Source: Clostridia bacterium
GTDB lineage: Bacteria > Bacillota > Clostridia > Oscillospirales > Acutalibacteraceae
Direction of reading: 5' to 3'
DNA length: 64,000 nucleotides
Assembly (NCBI GenBank): GCA_017416345.1
Contig: JAFQCR010000015.1
Location: 1 to 64,000 of the forward strand
The position numbers were made by a program, and so were the translations under genes. Shown here piece by piece: positions 38,968 through 44,161 of this stretch (its first letter is position 1; each line of letters starts with the position of its first letter). The notes beneath the pieces are model-generated. The model was not told the DNA's origin and searched no databases. It saw nothing but the letters and a program-made list of their open reading frames with translations.

Positions 38968-38992
38968 AAGAGGACTCTTCACGAGTCCTCTT
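38968..38992 (-). terminator. Intrinsic terminator of the recombinase gene
   Basis: AAGAGGACTC and GAGTCCTCTT (38968-38977 and 38983-38992) form a stem followed by a T-run on the minus strand, overlapping the last codons of the recombinase gene. Confidence 0.85.
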
Positions 38993-40010
38993 CATCATTT
39001 TTGCCAGATCTTGCAATGGTTGGTTTAACACCCGAAAGCGGATTTTTTGAAAAAGCCTCTTCAACCTGGCGGTTGGCAACATGGGTGTAAATTTGAGTTG
39101 TACCAAGGTTTTCGTGACCCAAAACCTCTTTTAAAACACGGATATCAACACCGCCCATCTGATACATCAGGGTTGCCGCCGTGTGGCGCAGCTTGTGAGC
39201 CGAAAAGCCTTGACCGCCAAGGCCTGCTTTATCAAGAAAGGTATATACGATATGCTGAACGGTCTTGTTGCTGATACGCTTTTTACGTCCGCTTAAAAAC
39301 AGAGCAAACTTATCCTTTTGCTCAACACCGTCGTGAGGGCGGACCTGCATATAAGCGTTTACAGCCAGCATACAAGCCTCGTTAAGATAAATAACACGTT
39401 CTTTGTTGCCTTTACCGGTGATTTTTAGCGAACCGTCCTCACGAATGTCGGTATAATTCAAGGAACACAGCTCCGATAAACGCATTCCACAGTTCAAAAA
39501 TAGCGTCAAAATACAAAAATCCCGTTCTTTATTAGGCCCGTCGACCGATTTCAAAAGATCAATGCTTTGCTCTAAAGACAGATGGACCGGTAAGGATTTT
39601 TTTAGCTTTGGAGTATCCAATTCGGCCGCAGGGTTGATCTTTAAAAGGTGAATATTATTAGTCAGATACTTAAAAAATACCCTTAAAGCCGACACCTTAC
39701 GAGCCCGTGCAGCGGCACCGTTGGAGCGTTCATTTTTACAATAAACAATAAAAGAATAAAGATCGGTCATTGTGACCGATTTCATCATATCCTCATCAAT
39801 ATCGTCTACAATAATGTCCGAAAAATCGGTACCATCGGGGACAAGACCGCGCTGAAGCTTTAGAAATTTGAAGAATAGGGTAAGGTCGAGGTAATACTGC
39901 TCGGCGGTTTTGGCTGATTTTCCTTTGATAGTCTCACTGTAAACAAGAAAATCGCGCAAAATAGGTGCAGTTGAGTTTAATGTATTACGGTCCAAAAAAA
40001 TCACATCCAA
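38979..40010 (-). CDS. Tyrosine recombinase (XerC/integrase type)
   Basis: The 343-residue protein has a SAM-like N-terminal DNA-binding domain (residues about 20-130) and a complete catalytic domain: Arg in NCGMRLSELCSL, Lys in ITGKGNKERVI, HKLRHTAAT, GHENLGTTQIY with the nucleophile Tyr. It resembles XerC-like recombinases more than phage integrases. The start is unclear: TTG at 40010, GTG at 40004 or TTG at 39995. Upstream, TTGTAA-17-TATAAT on the minus strand (40079-40107) is a likely promoter covered by repeated AATTATACAAAA boxes. It flanks the integrated mini-plasmid and may be the enzyme that acts on it. Confidence 0.88.
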   Translation of the reverse strand: MDVIFLDRNTLNSTAPILRDFLVYSETIKGKSAKTAEQYYLDLTLFFKFLKLQRGLVPDGTDFSDIIVDDIDEDMMKSVTMTDLYSFIVYCKNERSNGAAARARKVSALRVFFKYLTNNIHLLKINPAAELDTPKLKKSLPVHLSLEQSIDLLKSVDGPNKERDFCILTLFLNCGMRLSELCSLNYTDIREDGSLKITGKGNKERVIYLNEACMLAVNAYMQVRPHDGVEQKDKFALFLSGRKKRISNKTVQHIVYTFLDKAGLGGQGFSAHKLRHTAATLMYQMGGVDIRVLKEVLGHENLGTTQIYTHVANRQVEEAFSKNPLSGVKPTIARSGKNDEEDS

Positions 40011-40077: not shown

Positions 40078-40178
40078 AATTATACCAAATATTTTGTATA
40101 ATTACAATCCGACAATTATACAAAATATAGCTAATTTCTTTGTGCAATTATACAAAACGAGAAAGCGATTATACAAAA
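40078..40178. repeat. Array of AATTATACAAAA boxes over the recombinase promoter
   Basis: Box copies: AATTATACCAAA at 40078-40089; TTTTGTATAATT at 40092-40103; AATTATACAAAA at 40114-40125 and 40146-40157; GATTATACAAAA at 40167-40178. The first two form a near-perfect 26-bp palindrome; the second and third form 13-bp perfect inverted arms 10 bp apart. The last three start 32 and 21 bp apart, near whole helical turns. The same 12-mer is in both boundary repeats of the mini-plasmid. Confidence 0.8.
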
Positions 40179-40755
40179 TTTTTAGAAAATTCCGACTTGA
40201 AAGAGCTTAAAACAGTAACAAAACTGTATAAATTTAAGACCGGAGAAGTGATCAGATGATATTTAAAATAAAAAATAAACCGCTGAAAAATAACTTCGGT
40301 TTATTTTTTGTATGAAGTTAAAAGCTGAAAAAATTAAATTTATAAGCGAATGACGGCAATTTATAAAACAAATAAATATATTTCAAAAAAGCCATCGAAT
40401 AGCGCAGATCGAAATGATGCTGACATCGTCCGAAAAAAACTGAGAGGCTACAAAGGCAGATCTTTTTTTGCTAAAATGCGCCGAAGACACAAATTTTATC
40501 AAAAACCAAAAGTAAATCGAATCTGCGCAATTAAATCACTCAACAAATTTAAAAGTAAACAGTTTATAGCAGAAATAATTACCGAAAACAAAATTAAAAA
40601 AATAAATCAATATTCATTAATACCGACCGTTATTTAATTATAAAGAATGAAAAGAAAAAGGAATACAAATATAAACATGACCGTGAACAAAAATATTAAA
40701 GTTAACAAAGATAACCCTAAAAACCAGCCTTAAATAGCAAAAACCCTCCCCTTTA
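40179..40755. other. AT-rich non-coding stretch
   Basis: Very A-rich sequence on the plus strand. One hairpin terminator is visible (40271-40308: AAAAATAAACCG and its complement, T-run after). A lysine-rich 95-codon frame at 40350-40637 lacks a ribosome site and looks like chance. I see no convincing gene. Confidence 0.6.
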
Positions 40756-40788
40756 TTATCCAAAACATTCATTTTGTATAATTGATGA
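40755..40788. repeat. Left boundary site of the mini-plasmid (dif-like)
   Basis: The site reads left arm ATTATCCAAAA (40755-40765), spacer CATTCA (40766-40771), right arm TTTTGTATAAT (40772-40782). The arms are inverted repeats with one mismatch. This is the 11-6-11 architecture of Xer recombination sites. From 40766, 24 bp are repeated at 42820-42843 with one mismatch. The site overlaps the 3' end of the 40756-41019 gene. Confidence 0.7.
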
Positions 40789-41019
40789 TGTTTTGTTAAC
40801 AGATGATAAAGCGCTCTTTTCCCTAACGGTCAGCATATTATAAATATCTTTTACAATCTCTGCTGTAGTATCTCTACGGGTTTTTGCAATAATCAACTCA
40901 AGCATATCAACCTCGTCAACGTTATGATAGCGGTTAAAATTTCTCAATTCGTTGTATCGGTTTTCAGCATCCGCAGCTTGTCTATAACAGTACGTTAAAA
41001 CGTAGTCCTTAAAAGTCAT
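40756..41019 (-). CDS. Hypothetical protein of the mini-plasmid
   Basis: The 87-residue helical, charged protein (FKDYVLTYCYRQAADAENRY, then a VDEVDMLELIIAK helix) is not a family I recognise. Its last eight or so codons lie in the left boundary site, so integration would have replaced its original C-terminus. It is the last gene of the minus-strand unit RHH-rep-orf-orf. A short AGGAATT-like ribosome site lies before the ATG. Confidence 0.55.
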   Translation of the reverse strand: MTFKDYVLTYCYRQAADAENRYNELRNFNRYHNVDEVDMLELIIAKTRRDTTAEIVKDIYNMLTVREKSALSSVNKTSSIIQNECFG

Positions 41020-41050
41020 TGTGTTAATTCCTTTCTTTGAATGGGCTAAT

Positions 41051-41100
41051 TACTGCGATATTTCGCCTATGAGGTAAGGCGAAAATACCGCAGTATATTT
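41051..41100. terminator. Long hairpin between the two small genes
   Basis: TACTGCGATATTTCGCC (41051-41067) pairs with GGCGAAAATACCGCAGTA (41078-41095), about 16 pairs, with a T-rich tail on the plus strand. It may end a plus-strand transcript or stabilise mRNA. Confidence 0.6.
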
Positions 41101-41334
41101 TTATTCTTCCTCTACCGAACACGGTAAAGCGTCAAAATATTCCAATAATCTATTATTCATATCTTCGAGCAAATCTACCCTTTCAGCAAGCAATCCCAAA
41201 ATCTCATTCTCATATTTAGAATAAAATTCATCACCTTGCGTGTTAAGTAAAAGATAAAAAGCAAAACAATGTCTTTTGCTTTCGTAAATAAATTCCTCGA
41301 ATTTCGTTGAGTTATCGCCTTTAATAATTTTCAT
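41101..41334 (-). CDS. Hypothetical protein of the mini-plasmid
   Basis: The 77-residue acidic helical protein (KFEEFIYESKRHCFAFYLLL, then LLAERVDLLEDMNNRLLEYF) is not recognised. GAAAGGTAG lies before the ATG. Its leader region is overlapped by the plus-strand small-RNA cassette at 41362-41478, just as rep is by the cassette at 42097-42210, so it may be copy-number or maintenance related. Confidence 0.6.
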   Translation of the reverse strand: MKIIKGDNSTKFEEFIYESKRHCFAFYLLLNTQGDEFYSKYENEILGLLAERVDLLEDMNNRLLEYFDALPCSVEEE

Positions 41335-41361
41335 ATATATCTACCTTTCTGAAATTTACAC

Positions 41362-41390
41362 TTGCAGAAACGATAACTTTGCGATATAAT
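41362..41390 (+). promoter_or_regulatory. Promoter of antisense RNA cassette 2
   Basis: TTGCAG and TATAAT are exactly 17 bp apart on the plus strand, opposite to the flanking genes. Confidence 0.7.
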
Positions 41391-41396
41391 AAATTT

Positions 41397-41478
41397 ACCG
41401 CAAGCGGTTTAACTGCTTGTGCGTTTAATACGAGGCTGTCAATTCCGTTTCCCTACCGGTTGACAGTCTTATTTTTTT
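41397..41478 (+). ncRNA. Candidate antisense RNA 2
   Basis: A predicted transcript of about 80 nt starts after TATAAT, forms a first hairpin (CGCAAGC with GCTTGTGCG) and ends in a terminator (GGCTGTCAA 41434-41442 with TTGACAGTC 41460-41468, then a T-run). It is complementary to the leader of the gene at 41101-41334. It mirrors cassette 1 in layout and in the shared start sequence ATTTACC. Confidence 0.55.
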
Positions 41479-41494
41479 GCGTTTCAAAAGCAAA

Positions 41495-42067
41495 TCAATC
41501 AAAACATTCTCCACCGGTCTGTTTTTGAACATCATTAAACAGCTGTCGTATATGTCCATAATGAATTACAAAGTCACGACCGTATCTTTTTGCAATTTCA
41601 ATTAAAGGTACGCCGTTAATCATTTCAGATAATGCCAAAGATAGATTATCGGTATCCTGCAGGTCTTTATCAATAAAGAAATCAACGTTAAAACCTTTAA
41701 CAAAAGATTCATCATAAATATATTTATTATCTTGAATAGCGTTCTCGGTATTGTGCGTCAAATACTCAAAACAACAAGAAATATTATGCATAGGTTCGCA
41801 AAAACTATTTATAGATAAATCGTTATTGTCTGTAAAGCCTTGAAACCATTTAACAACGGAATTGCAAGTTGTAGCATTATACAAAGCCAACAAAATATGA
41901 AAATGTGGCTCTTTGAGTGAACCATCTTCCCTAATATCTTTATCGTGCAAAATATAAGCGTAAGCTTTAATTTGTGAATCGTGTGAGTTCAACACAGACA
42001 ATATCTTATCTTCATTAAGATAGGAAATCAAAGCAAAATTGCGGATTTTACGAGATTTATTTGACAT
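41495..42067 (-). CDS. rep: Rolling-circle replication initiator (Rep, pMV158 type)
   Basis: The 190-residue protein matches the Rep_2 family: IRNFALISYLNE at the start, YAYILHDKDIREDG, the HUH-type metal motif PHFHILLAL (H55, H57), and the FEYLTHNTENA segment with the likely nicking Tyr102. It would nick the plasmid origin and start rolling-circle replication. A GGAGTA site precedes the ATG. It follows an RHH gene, as copG precedes repB in pMV158. No frameshift is visible, so it may still be functional. Confidence 0.88.
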   Translation of the reverse strand: MSNKSRKIRNFALISYLNEDKILSVLNSHDSQIKAYAYILHDKDIREDGSLKEPHFHILLALYNATTCNSVVKWFQGFTDNNDLSINSFCEPMHNISCCFEYLTHNTENAIQDNKYIYDESFVKGFNVDFFIDKDLQDTDNLSLALSEMINGVPLIEIAKRYGRDFVIHYGHIRQLFNDVQKQTGGECFD

Positions 42068-42096
42068 AAAATACTCCTTTCATAAATATTTACCGC

Positions 42097-42125
42097 TTGA
42101 AGTTTTCCTAAAATTATAGTATAAT
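42097..42125 (+). promoter_or_regulatory. Promoter of antisense RNA cassette 1
   Basis: TTGAAG and TATAAT are exactly 17 bp apart on the plus strand, in the gap between rep and the RHH gene and pointing against both. Confidence 0.75.
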
Positions 42126-42131
42126 AGATTT

Positions 42132-42210
42132 ACCATAATAAAGGGCCTTTTATTGTGGTGAATTGAGTAGTGTTTCACTTTGGACGGTGCGAGCACTACT
42201 CTCTTTTTTT
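42132..42210 (+). ncRNA. Candidate countertranscribed RNA 1
   Basis: The predicted transcript of about 80 nt has a first hairpin (CCATAATAAA with TTTTATTGTGG) and a terminator (GAGTAGTG 42165-42172 with CACTACTC 42194-42201, then a T-run). It is antisense to the mRNA between the RHH gene and rep, the place where pMV158 encodes its RNA II copy-number regulator. The T-run overlaps the RHH stop codon. Confidence 0.65.
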
Positions 42211-42436
42211 AATTCTGAAACTGCTTGAATTTTTCGCTTAAATCCTTAAATTGAGCAAGCAATTCTTTAAGTTGAGGATTCCCCTGCAATTTATCATAAT
42301 CACCAATAATCAGATTTATCAAAACCTCACTACGCTTCAAATCATAAAGTTTGCAGAGTTCGTCCAATTTAACAACGACTTCAACAGGCATTCTCGTTGT
42401 AATTGCAACAGTTTCATAATTTTTTTTATTAGACAT
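42209..42436 (-). CDS. Ribbon-helix-helix (CopG-like) repressor
   Basis: The 75-residue protein has the RHH pattern: a beta strand TVAITTRMPVEVVVKLDELC, then helix LYDLKRSEVLINLIIGDY, plus a C-terminal helical tail (LKELLAQFKDLSEKF). By position upstream of rep it corresponds to CopG of pMV158, which represses the cop-rep promoter. It is longer than CopG (45 residues). Confidence 0.82.
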   Translation of the reverse strand: MSNKKNYETVAITTRMPVEVVVKLDELCKLYDLKRSEVLINLIIGDYDKLQGNPQLKELLAQFKDLSEKFKQFQN

Positions 42437-42808
42437 TTTATCCCCCCTTTTTATTGTCCTAATACATTATAACAACTTGTAATTATAATGTCAAGATAAT
42501 TTTTTAAAAAACACAAAATAAGACACAAGACACACCACCACTATTGACGCGGGATAGTGGTGGCTTTTTCTACGGCAGATATAGAAGACCAATTTTTACA
42601 TACTGCATACAGATTTTATTCTTGGTTCGTCGTGAGCGAGGCAAGTTATAGCAGAACTAACACTGGCGTCTTCGGCTTATGTTGACAGAGAAAGGGGCAA
42701 GGCTTGGCAACCTCAGAAAGCAAAATAAGAAAGCCTACGCCCTATTGTGGGCATAGGCTTTAGGTTCGGAAACCTTAGTATTTATATAACGGGTAAACCT
42801 TAGTATTA
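42437..42808. other. Origin-like non-coding region of the mini-plasmid
   Basis: The stretch holds a hairpin (CCACCACTAT 42535-42544, ATAGTGGTGG 42554-42563) followed at once by CTTTTTCTACGG. This faintly resembles the nick region of pMV158-type double-strand origins (CTTTTACTACGA). A second strong hairpin lies at 42730-42761 (AAAGCCTACGCCC with GGGCATAGGCTTT). AAACCTTAGTATT is repeated at 42770-42782 and 42795-42807. The region lies upstream of the RHH-rep unit, where the origin is expected. Confidence 0.5.
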
Positions 42809-42843
42809 TTATCAAATGTCATTCATTTTGTATAATTGCTGAT
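42809..42843. repeat. Right boundary site of the mini-plasmid
   Basis: The site reads TTATCAAATGT (42809-42819), spacer CATTCA (42820-42825), TTTTGTATAAT (42826-42836). Spacer, right arm and the next bases repeat the left site; the left arm has diverged, as seen at one end of elements that use host Xer sites. Confidence 0.65.
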
Positions 42844-42986: not shown

Positions 42987-43235
42987 TCACCAATTAACTT
43001 TATCGGCGGGAACACAATTATTAATACTTTCCTTGGCACCCATCATTATTTCTTGCCAAGCTTTTGCGTCAATATCGGATGATACAAATCTCAATAATTT
43101 GCAGAATTCCTTTTCACTTATCATTACAGCTTTACCGAGTTCTGTTGAAATTTTTATAATTTGGTCATCCTTCACCGTTTCGTTAATATAACAATTTAAA
43201 TTTTGCTCAAATTCACTTGGTTTTATATTTATCAT
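42987..43235 (-). CDS. Phd/YefM-type antitoxin, no partner toxin
   Basis: The 82-residue protein has the antitoxin fold pattern: INIKPSEFEQNLNCYINE, then KISTELGKAVMISEKEFCKL, and a C-terminal segment ending ADKVNW typical of the toxin-binding tail. AAAGGG lies before the ATG at 43235. No toxin frame lies next to it; the 140 bases downstream are AT-rich with no open frame. It lies between the mini-plasmid and xerD, so it may be a relic of earlier insertions. Confidence 0.75.
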   Translation of the reverse strand: MINIKPSEFEQNLNCYINETVKDDQIIKISTELGKAVMISEKEFCKLLRFVSSDIDAKAWQEIMMGAKESINNCVPADKVNW

Positions 43236-43273
43236 AAATTTCCCTTTCATCTCTAAAAGAAATCACCCGAAGG

Positions 43274-44161
43274 TCATCTTGCCATCGGGTGATACTTTTT
43301 ATAGCTGTGCGCATATCTGTTTCTCATAAGCTGTGCGTAGACCTGCGTTGATGACAGATCCGAGTGACCCAAGATCTCCTGTATATCCTTCAACGGAGCT
43401 CCGTTTTCAAGCAAATGTGCTGCAAACGAATGTCTTATTGTATGCGGAGTTATGTCCTTACTGATATTAGCCTTATCGGCATAATACTTGATGATCTTCC
43501 AAAGTCCCTGCCTGGTCATAGGTTGACCGTTCATATTGGTAAAAAGCTCGGTCGTGTTTTTATCAAGCACTACCACTTCCCTAACGTTGGCGCAATAGTT
43601 AGACAACGCTTTGATGGCCTCGGGATAGATCGGCACGATTCTTTCATTCTTTCCGTTTTTCAAATGAAGAATACCTATCTGCAGGTTAAGATCCGATACA
43701 TTTATGCTGATAAGCTCGGAAACCTTGATACCGGTTGCGTAAAGGAGCTCAAGCATTGCTTTATCACGGCAGCCTTTAAGATCGTTGCAATCGGGCTGCG
43801 AAAGCAGAACCGAAACCTCTTTGGCGGTAAGAATTTCGGGGAGCTTTTTTTCGGTCTTCTTTTGCTTGATGCCCAGCACGGGGTTTTCCTTTGCAATACC
43901 CTGCGCAACAAGGAATCCGTAATAACAGCGCAAGGAAGCCAGCACCCTTGTAACGGTTGAAGGCGACTTGCCTGCCTTAACAAGAGAATCGGTGTATGAT
44001 ACGATCTGAGCCTGCTTTGCGGTAGCGGTAGATCTGAGGTTTGTGTTTTCACAGTAAGCCGAAAACTGGCTAACATCACGAATATAAGACTCCAACGTAT
44101 TGCCGGAGCTGTTTTTAGTCTCTTTTAAATAAACCTGGAATTCTTTGATGTAAGCCTTCAT
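43274..44161 (-). CDS. xerD: Tyrosine recombinase XerD
   Basis: The 295-residue protein begins MKAYIKEFQVYLKETKNSSG and has the full catalytic set: Arg in LLYATGIKVSELI (here the usual Arg is Lys in TGIKVSEL), Lys in LKNGKNERIVP, HTIRHSFAAHLL, and GHSDLSSTQVY with the Tyr. It sits directly downstream of spoIIM, as the Xer recombinase ripX/xerD lies near spoIIM in Bacillus, so it is probably the chromosome-dimer resolvase. The Arg-to-Lys change at the first catalytic position is unusual and may reduce activity. Confidence 0.85.
   Translation of the reverse strand: MKAYIKEFQVYLKETKNSSGNTLESYIRDVSQFSAYCENTNLRSTATAKQAQIVSYTDSLVKAGKSPSTVTRVLASLRCYYGFLVAQGIAKENPVLGIKQKKTEKKLPEILTAKEVSVLLSQPDCNDLKGCRDKAMLELLYATGIKVSELISINVSDLNLQIGILHLKNGKNERIVPIYPEAIKALSNYCANVREVVVLDKNTTELFTNMNGQPMTRQGLWKIIKYYADKANISKDITPHTIRHSFAAHLLENGAPLKDIQEILGHSDLSSTQVYAQLMRNRYAHSYKKYHPMAR

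What the first reader, a model, noticed from the sequence alone, without database searches (positions are those of the whole stretch)
40755..42843. Mini-plasmid bounded by dif-like sites (candidate Xer-type integration)
Seen: 24-bp direct repeats (one mismatch) 2054 bp apart; the left one sits in an 11-6-11 inverted site with spacer CATTCA; the right one keeps spacer and right arm but has a diverged left arm. Inside are RHH, rep and small genes in pMV158 order. Tyrosine recombinase genes flank both sides. Known: phages and plasmids can integrate through host Xer recombination sites. Inference: a rolling-circle plasmid integrated here by such a mechanism. I know of no such small pMV158-type example, but cannot search.
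Basis: partly seen in the sequence, partly recalled or inferred. Interest (0 to 1): 0.82.

Follow-up and report, generated by a model that had tools for sequence, protein, structure and literature searches.

The report
Tiny satellite-like element inserted at dif
A 2-kb rolling-circle replicon, most closely related to filamentous phages but carrying none of their recognisable shell genes, sits in what looks like the chromosome's own end-of-replication recombination site (dif) of an uncultured gut Clostridia bacterium, next to the host enzyme that probably put it there.

Summary
In detail: a 2,054-bp unit lies between 24-bp repeats (one mismatch). The left repeat is part of an 11-6-11 site (10/11 dyad); the right keeps spacer and right arm only (3/11).

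The left site is the chromosome's dif-like site. It recurs in 163 of 300 family genomes, lies just upstream of an ortholog of the window's 343-aa recombinase in 55 of 60 fetched regions, and sits at the GC-skew switch of a complete genome. Two congeners have it empty.

The flanking recombinases are thus host Xer-type genes. The unit has none and fits an integrative mobile element exploiting Xer, with the half-mimic attachment site described for satellite phage TLCphi.

Its Rep has the pMV158-type domain but groups with an inovirus prophage inserted the same way in a relative, not with the plasmids sampled. Its 87-aa gene recurs in inoviruses and beside dif elsewhere. Best reading: a minimal inovirus-lineage satellite or replicon; a decayed prophage is possible.

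Five other elements occupy dif in 4 of 63 further regions: two inoviruses and three replicons with their own small recombinase. The symmetric dif with one linked recombinase may be an undescribed single-recombinase system. Excision and helper were not shown.

The parts
40755..40782 (+). attL: complete dif-like site, host left arm ATTATCCAAAA, spacer CATTCA, right arm TTTTGTATAAT; host flank CCCTCCCCT to its left
   Evidence: homologous empty sites L015:7585-7612 and L016:6626-6653
40766..40789 (+). left copy of the 24-bp direct repeat
42809..42836 (+). attR: diverged left arm TTATCAAATGT, same spacer and right arm
42820..42843 (+). right copy of the 24-bp direct repeat
42466..42494 (-). consensus promoter TTGACA-17-TATAAT (12/12) before the RHH-like ORF and Rep, overlapping inverted repeat 42464-42472/42483-42491 (candidate repressor operator)
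   Evidence: operator role inferred
42209..42436 (-). 75-aa ribbon-helix-helix-like ORF, candidate repressor
   Evidence: weak profile matches, PHROG 12301 E 7e-4 and NCBIfam aCcr1 E 1.6e-3
42165..42201 (.). 8-bp hairpin between the RHH-like ORF and Rep, candidate origin element
   Evidence: role inferred
41495..42067 (-). 190-aa Rep, Rep_OBD domain, with HFH and YLTH residues kept in a 4-row alignment (second position of HFH varies)
41101..41334 (-). 77-aa ORF, no homolog found
40756..41019 (-). 87-aa ORF next to the att; family shared with inoviruses and found beside dif elsewhere
42497..42819 (.). non-coding part of the unit, with hairpins 42535-42563 and 42730-42761; candidate replication signals
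   Evidence: fold of 42440-42830 z -3.5; role inferred
38979..40010 (-). 343-aa host Xer-type tyrosine recombinase (R343), orthologs adjacent to dif in the family
40079..40178 (.). four exact and one near copies of the dif arm (TTTTGTATAAT/ATTATACAAAA) upstream of R343; three exact copies in G225
   Evidence: possible autoregulation, inferred
43274..44161 (-). 295-aa host XerD-like recombinase (R295) with Lys at the first catalytic Arg position, next to spoIIM

Best explanation
The unit is a minimal rolling-circle replicon of the inovirus lineage (satellite-like), inserted in the host's dif site by the host's own Xer-type recombinase, most likely R343. The circular form would carry a half-mimic of dif: the spacer CATTCA and a perfect right arm, with a degenerate left arm. 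Recombination between it and the chromosomal dif gives attL, a complete dif that can still serve the host, and attR, which keeps one good arm. The Rep drives rolling-circle replication of the free form, the RHH-like protein probably represses the promoter in front of its own gene and rep, and the 87-aa protein is probably an accessory factor acting with the att. Shown by comparison: site identity, empty sites, conservation of the host recombinases beside the site, no recombinase or Zot found in the unit, relation of Rep and the 87-aa protein to inoviruses. Inferred: which recombinase acts, excision, the roles of the small genes, and whether a helper phage packages it.
For: Same-genus genomes G225 and G139 have the uninterrupted 11/11 dyad site at the same place. 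Pattern ATTATACWAAA-N6-TTTWGTATAAT (2 mismatches or fewer) occurs in 163 of 300 family genomes and 87 of 135 genera, once in 151 of the 163, against 11 of 300 genomes for the reversed control (the last two counts are read from its table). An R343 ortholog has the site just upstream in 55 of 60 fetched regions, median 78 bp, maximum 754. In complete genome G247 the site is at 1,690,650 of 3,435,529 and the skew changes from +0.141 to -0.045 there; own contig C13 has its cumulative-skew maximum at 36-40 kb. In G180 an inovirus prophage (Zot, E 1.7e-6) with the nearest Rep (40%) is inserted the same way: attL 9/11, attR 4/11, shared spacer TATTCA. Rep tree: window with the G180 inovirus 97/95, then bajarodino virus 4 (Inoviridae) 94/93; four plasmid Reps in a separate 100/99 clade. 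The 87-aa protein matches the G180 prophage's last gene, which lies next to its att (E 9e-12), and the gene after rep in bajarodino virus 75 (E 6e-4). Of nine further hits of this family, five lie within about 0.5 kb of dif or R343. Own genome has just two XerD-profile matches, R343 and R295. The unit has no match to the small recombinase of other dif elements and no Zot.
Against: No circular form, reads or strain variation were seen; the exact attP junction had 0 matches in viral contigs. The closest Rep found is only 40% identical (300 family and 394 order genomes), so no second copy of this element is known to me. Own genome has no Zot match, so no resident helper was found. The RHH-like and 77-aa ORFs have no homologs among the inovirus loci held. 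One 2,003-bp plasmid has a related Rep (41% over 97 aa) without a dif-like site, so plasmids with related Reps exist. Some 87-aa family genes sit beside dif with no phage gene that I could recognise (L249, L253). The three other non-phage replicons found at dif carry a small tyrosine recombinase of their own, so host-only integration is not the rule for such replicons.
Confidence: 0.7

Rival explanations
1. The unit is the shrunken remnant of a full inovirus prophage that lost its coat and Zot block after insertion; it is no longer an independent element.
For: Rep and 87-aa genes are related to inoviral ones, and Zot-bearing elements sit at dif in relatives (G180; G034/L161 and G247/L140).
Against: All four ORFs are open, with a 12/12 promoter, operator-like repeat and structured non-coding region. 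The gene order is compact and both ends still share the whole spacer and one arm.
Confidence: 0.2
2. It is an ordinary pMV158-type plasmid that picked up a dif half-site and has nothing to do with inoviruses.
For: Rep_OBD domain, RHH-like gene before rep, size like small plasmids; Rep_1 replicons without Zot also sit at dif (L154, L156, L140).
Against: Rep groups with inovirus Reps and not with the four CopG/Rep-type plasmids sampled; the 87-aa gene is an inovirus and dif-linked family; the Rep_1 replicons carry their own recombinase, the unit does not.
Confidence: 0.12
3. Integration was carried out by a heterotetramer of R343 and R295 (XerC/XerD-like), or by a recombinase of another element, not by R343 alone.
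For: R295 scores close to the XerD model (313.7 against cut-off 329.6) and lies near dif in this genus and in several others (28 rows). Three other dif elements carry a small tyrosine recombinase (L140, L154, L156).
Against: Both arms of the site are identical, unlike XerC/XerD sites (recalled); R295 has Lys at the first catalytic Arg position in the window, two congeners and L195 (4 of 28 rows); R343 is the gene next to the site in 55 of 60 regions.
Confidence: 0.2
4. The repeats are promoter-like AT-rich sequence and the unit is ordinary chromosome.
For: The arm contains TATAAT, and promoter-like matches are common here (21 found against 9.5 expected).
Against: Empty sites in congeners, uniqueness of the repeat, family-wide recurrence of the dyad site.
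Confidence: 0.02

Closest known systems
TLCphi satellite phage of Vibrio cholerae (TLC-type IMEX)
   Same: Own replication module, no structural genes, relies on host Xer; att mimics one arm and the centre of dif with the other arm diverged (from passages of PMC4246890 and PMC5357621).
   Different: 2.05 kb; Rep_OBD replicon in a Clostridia genome; target is a symmetric dif beside one recombinase; helper and packaging unknown.
RS1 satellite of CTXphi
   Same: Small repressor-plus-replication satellite of a filamentous phage at dif (gene content recalled; PMC4246890 lists RS1 in the CTXphi class).
   Different: The CTXphi class integrates as single-stranded DNA; the window ends share the whole 6-bp spacer, as expected for double-stranded exchange. 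No rstC-like gene was identified.
Inovirus prophage of G180 (JAFQOT010000005.1, goat-colon Clostridia MAG)
   Same: Nearest Rep, homologous last gene, same kind of insertion site and half-mimic att.
   Different: 4.75 kb with Zot and small coat-like ORFs.
pMV158-type plasmids
   Same: Rep_OBD domain, small repressor-like gene before rep.
   Different: The four sampled plasmid Reps (labelled so by me) lie in another clade; I did not examine them for dif-like sites.
XerS-difSL, XerH-difH, XerL-dif
   Same: One recombinase; gene linked to dif (XerS); perfect dyad arms (Legionella XerL dif; PMC9765430 and PMC5357621 passages).
   Different: R343 reaches no NCBIfam cut-off for XerC, XerD, XerA or XerS; arms ATTATACAAAA; found here in Clostridia.

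Membership tests
IMEX (integrative mobile element exploiting Xer) | inserted at the chromosomal dif | tested here: met
   empty sites in G225 and G139; terminus position; family-wide recurrence
IMEX (integrative mobile element exploiting Xer) | carries a dif mimic and no integrase of its own | tested here: met
   attR half-mimic; no Phage_integrase among the unit's four ORFs, no match to the small recombinase of other dif elements
IMEX (integrative mobile element exploiting Xer) | integration and excision depend on host Xer recombinases | not testable with these tools
   needs an assay; attP junction scan found nothing in viral contigs
TLCphi-type satellite | autonomous replication gene, no virion genes | tested here: met
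   Rep_OBD the only recognised domain; no Zot in the unit or in the genome; coat proteins are too small and diverse for a firm negative
TLCphi-type satellite | att with one arm and centre of dif, other arm diverged | tested here: met
   10/11 at attL against 3/11 at attR, identical spacer
TLCphi-type satellite | packaged by a helper filamentous phage | not testable with these tools
   no helper found in own genome
pMV158-type RCR plasmid | RepB-like Rep_OBD domain behind a CopG-like gene | tested here: met
   Rep_OBD; CopG/RHH match weak
pMV158-type RCR plasmid | Rep groups with pMV158-type plasmid Reps | tested here: not met
   (four such plasmids sampled)
Inoviridae | Zot-type ATPase and coat genes | tested here: not met
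   no Zot; coat genes not recognised, sensitivity limited
Inoviridae | replication gene of inovirus descent | tested here: met
   97/95 with G180 prophage, 94/93 with bajarodino virus 4
single-recombinase dif/Xer system (host side) | unique dif at the terminus beside one recombinase gene | tested here: met
   terminus position tested in one complete genome and the own contig
single-recombinase dif/Xer system (host side) | one recombinase suffices for recombination | not testable with these tools
   inferred from dyad arms and the R295 Arg-to-Lys change
XerCD-dif of Firmicutes | canonical 28-bp dif | tested here: not met
   B. subtilis-type pattern (recalled), 3 mismatches or fewer: 0 of 100 family genomes; same pattern found in 2 of 8 other genomes, a Lactobacillus and a Vagococcus, and in none of the 6 Clostridia of that set

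The most novel reading that the evidence does not exclude
A family of gut Clostridia uses an undescribed single-recombinase Xer system (R343 with a perfectly symmetric dif in front of its gene), and that site is an integration hub for elements with four Rep families: inoviruses, small replicons with their own recombinase, and this 2-kb replicon that has neither recognisable shell genes nor recombinase and rides on the host enzyme. The 87-aa family would be a dedicated helper of Xer-mediated integration or excision, carried by phages and satellites alike.
Probability: 0.4. Interest if true: 0.78.

Novelty: new variant of a known kind. Interest (0 to 1): 0.64.

Why it matters
The Xer-exploiting elements named in the review passages read here are Vibrio phages and a few islands or elements of other Gram-negative bacteria. 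This case extends them to gut Clostridia, at 2 kb, and points to a dif/recombinase pair that can be tested as a single-recombinase chromosome dimer resolution system. A symmetric, recurrent dif beside its recombinase gives a simple way to find such elements in a large gut lineage, and the 87-aa gene offers a candidate co-factor to test.

Tried and rejected
Rejected: promoter-only repeats (empty sites); chance repeats (unique in genome); flanking recombinases belonging to the element (they flank empty sites in congeners); 2-kb plasmid pRGF00066 as a circular form (no dif-like site, Rep 41% over 97 aa).

Led nowhere: attP junction in IMG/VR; the 87-aa protein against phage records by tblastn (no match); the whole unit against phages (no match) and plasmids (one 94-bp Rep match) by distant blastn; profile names for the 87-aa family (chance-level matches); structure prediction of the RHH-like ORF (ticket still unfinished). 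L236 (G632) proved to hold a Zot-bearing element without a recognisable dif pair. One search was a script error, repeated corrected. A 17-bp second site in L166 with 2 mismatches was not counted as an element because the interval holds R343 itself; other second sites with 3 mismatches were also not counted.
Full report
What is there. The window is bases 1-64000 of contig C13 of a 2.47-Mb, 38-contig genome. Between 40766 and 42843 a 2,054-bp unit is bracketed by 24-bp direct repeats with one mismatch, the only matches in the genome as held with up to 3 mismatches. The left site is ATTATCCAAAA-CATTCA-TTTTGTATAAT (10 of 11 dyad pairs). The right site keeps spacer and right arm but has left arm TTATCAAATGT (3 of 11). 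The unit holds four minus-strand ORFs: a 75-aa RHH-like ORF, a 190-aa Rep (Rep_OBD, E 1.2e-13), a 77-aa and an 87-aa ORF. A 12/12 consensus promoter lies before the RHH-like ORF, overlapping a perfect 9-nt inverted repeat. A 391-nt stretch covering the non-coding part folds better than shuffles (z -3.5).

The site is the host's dif-like site. Two same-genus genomes have it uninterrupted, with 11 of 11 dyad pairs and a CTCCCCT flank: L015 with spacer CTTACA, L016 with spacer TATTGA. The third congener, G004, has one pattern match whose place was not listed, so its state is unknown. Aligning the window flanks with the unit left out shows the match across the site; beyond the right arm, flank similarity is weak. 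In 300 family genomes the pattern ATTATACWAAA-N6-TTTWGTATAAT (2 mismatches or fewer) is in 163 genomes and 87 of 135 genera; 12 of the 163 have more than one match, and the reversed control hits 11 of 300 (the last two counts read from its table). I fetched 60 regions around matches listed there, from 58 genomes; the printed list was itself cut. In 55 of 60 an R343 ortholog lies with the site just upstream of its start, median 78 bp, maximum 754; the five without are L168, L175, L186, L187 and L201, of which L186 and L187 are extra matches in one genome. These regions were picked because they match the pattern, so they are not a random sample of genomes. In the one complete genome sampled, G247, the site is at 49% of the chromosome and the GC skew switches there, +0.141 before and -0.045 after within one 20-kb stretch; of the other 16 sampled stretches those before it are at or above zero (one prints as -0.0) and those after it negative, except one at +0.009. 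The window's own contig has its cumulative-skew maximum at about 36-40 kb. A named genome, Butyricicoccus faecihominis, has a perfect copy with the CTCCCCT flank about 40 bp from its contig end; no R343 match was found in the 6 kb held on the other side.

Which recombinase. The own genome gives two XerD-profile matches, R343 and R295. R343 keeps the Arg, His-x-x-Arg and Tyr motifs in all 60 aligned rows; R295 has Lys at the first Arg position in the window, L015, L016 and L195, and Arg in the other 24 of 28 rows (rows under 40% identity were dropped before these counts; the catalytic roles are recalled). R343 passes no NCBIfam cut-off for XerC, XerD, XerA or XerS. A Bacillus-type dif pattern (recalled) is in 0 of 100 family genomes, against 2 of 8 genomes in a control set; the six misses in that set are all Clostridia, so the control is partial. 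Symmetric arms and linkage to one gene resemble XerS and, for perfect dyad arms, Legionella XerL (PMC9765430 and PMC5357621, passages). I infer a single-recombinase system; this was not tested.

Where the unit comes from. Its Rep is 40% identical to that of a prophage in G180 (the same contig as JAFQOT010000005.1, by length and unit), which has a Zot ATPase and sits at the same kind of site: attL 9/11, attR 4/11, shared spacer TATTCA. In a 93-row tree the two group at 97/95, joined by bajarodino virus 4 (Inoviridae) at 94/93; four plasmid Reps with a small gene or CopG-like gene in front form a 100/99 clade elsewhere. The 87-aa ORF matches the G180 prophage's last gene (E 9e-12) and the gene after rep in bajarodino virus 75 (E 6e-4). 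Searching this family in 398 genomes gave 11 hits including the window and G180. Of the other nine, L248, L249, L252, L253 and L255 lie within about 0.5 kb of dif or R343; L254 has a symmetric dif-like site about 120 bp away; L256 has Zot and a dif-like site within 7 kb; L250 lies beside genes that I take for tyrS and recN (names recalled from sequence), which lie near R343 in the window, at a contig start; L251 is a 5.3-kb contig with no R343, Zot or dif-like site. None of these nine has a Rep_OBD hit by my profile. Zot was detected in L248, L252, L255 and L256; in L249 and L253 I recognised no phage genes, so the gene can outlast or act apart from its phage.

How common. With a second half-site of 1 mismatch or less as the criterion, 5 of 64 sources examined (60 regions plus L140, L015, L016 and the window) have an element at dif, six elements in all. 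They are the window; L140 with two (4.4 kb Rep_1, 5.6 kb Rep_trans with a Zot); L154 (3.3 kb, Rep_1); L156 (3.7 kb, Rep_1, sequence partly N); and L161 (6.9 kb, G2P-type Rep with Zot). The three Rep_1 replicons carry a small tyrosine recombinase of their own, complete in L140 and L154, in two pieces in L156; the window unit, L161, the 5.6-kb L140 element and the G180 prophage show no match to it. So in this survey the window's is the one element with neither Zot nor recombinase. Further dif-like insertions of Rep_OBD elements are seen in L052 (R343 ortholog 51% identical beside the site) and L062, and, with other arms, in L086 and L076 (Saccharibacteria).

Reading. The unit fits an IMEX. In passages of PMC4246890 and PMC5357621 TLCphi is described as a satellite with replication but no structural genes, whose att matches one side and the centre of dif and diverges on the other. 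The window shows the same anatomy. Not shown: excision, circular form (0 attP hits in viral contigs), packaging, helper (no Zot in own genome). A remnant of a full inovirus prophage remains possible.

Literature. Searches of the open-access library listed, among the rows shown, no paper whose title or abstract start concerns a Clostridia single-recombinase dif or a pMV158-type or inovirus-satellite insertion there. I saw search listings, plus passages of PMC9765430, PMC3025954, PMC5357621 and PMC4246890. Subscription papers and preprints are not covered, so novelty is provisional.

Noticed in passing
window 40079-40178: Four exact and one near copies of the dif arm lie directly upstream of the R343 gene; three exact copies are kept in G225 (L015:7009-7107). 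Possible autoregulation by the recombinase.
   Followed up: partly
L154:6440-6500, L156:13480-13545, L048:6250-6300: In these three dif-linked replicons the far-end site seems to have both arms but a 10-bp spacer instead of 6, possibly a class that exchanges one strand pair only.
   Followed up: no
window 43274-44161: XerD-like R295 has Lys where the first catalytic Arg is expected, in the window, two congeners and L195, but Arg in 24 of 28 rows.
   Followed up: partly
L048:6221-8811: A 2.5-kb unit with a Rep of 465 aa in a Ruminococcus MAG lies beside a symmetric dif-like site (GTTGCACTAAA arms) with 49-bp repeats and an R343-like gene (45%) nearby.
   Followed up: partly
L086 and L076: Zot- and Rep_OBD-bearing elements in two Saccharibacteria contigs are bracketed by dif-like repeats.
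   Followed up: no
window 42987-43250: An 87-aa Phd-like antitoxin ORF (Pfam E 0.07, below its cut-off) lies between attR and R295; in G225 the R295 ortholog ends about 90 bp after the dif site, leaving no room for it.
   Followed up: no
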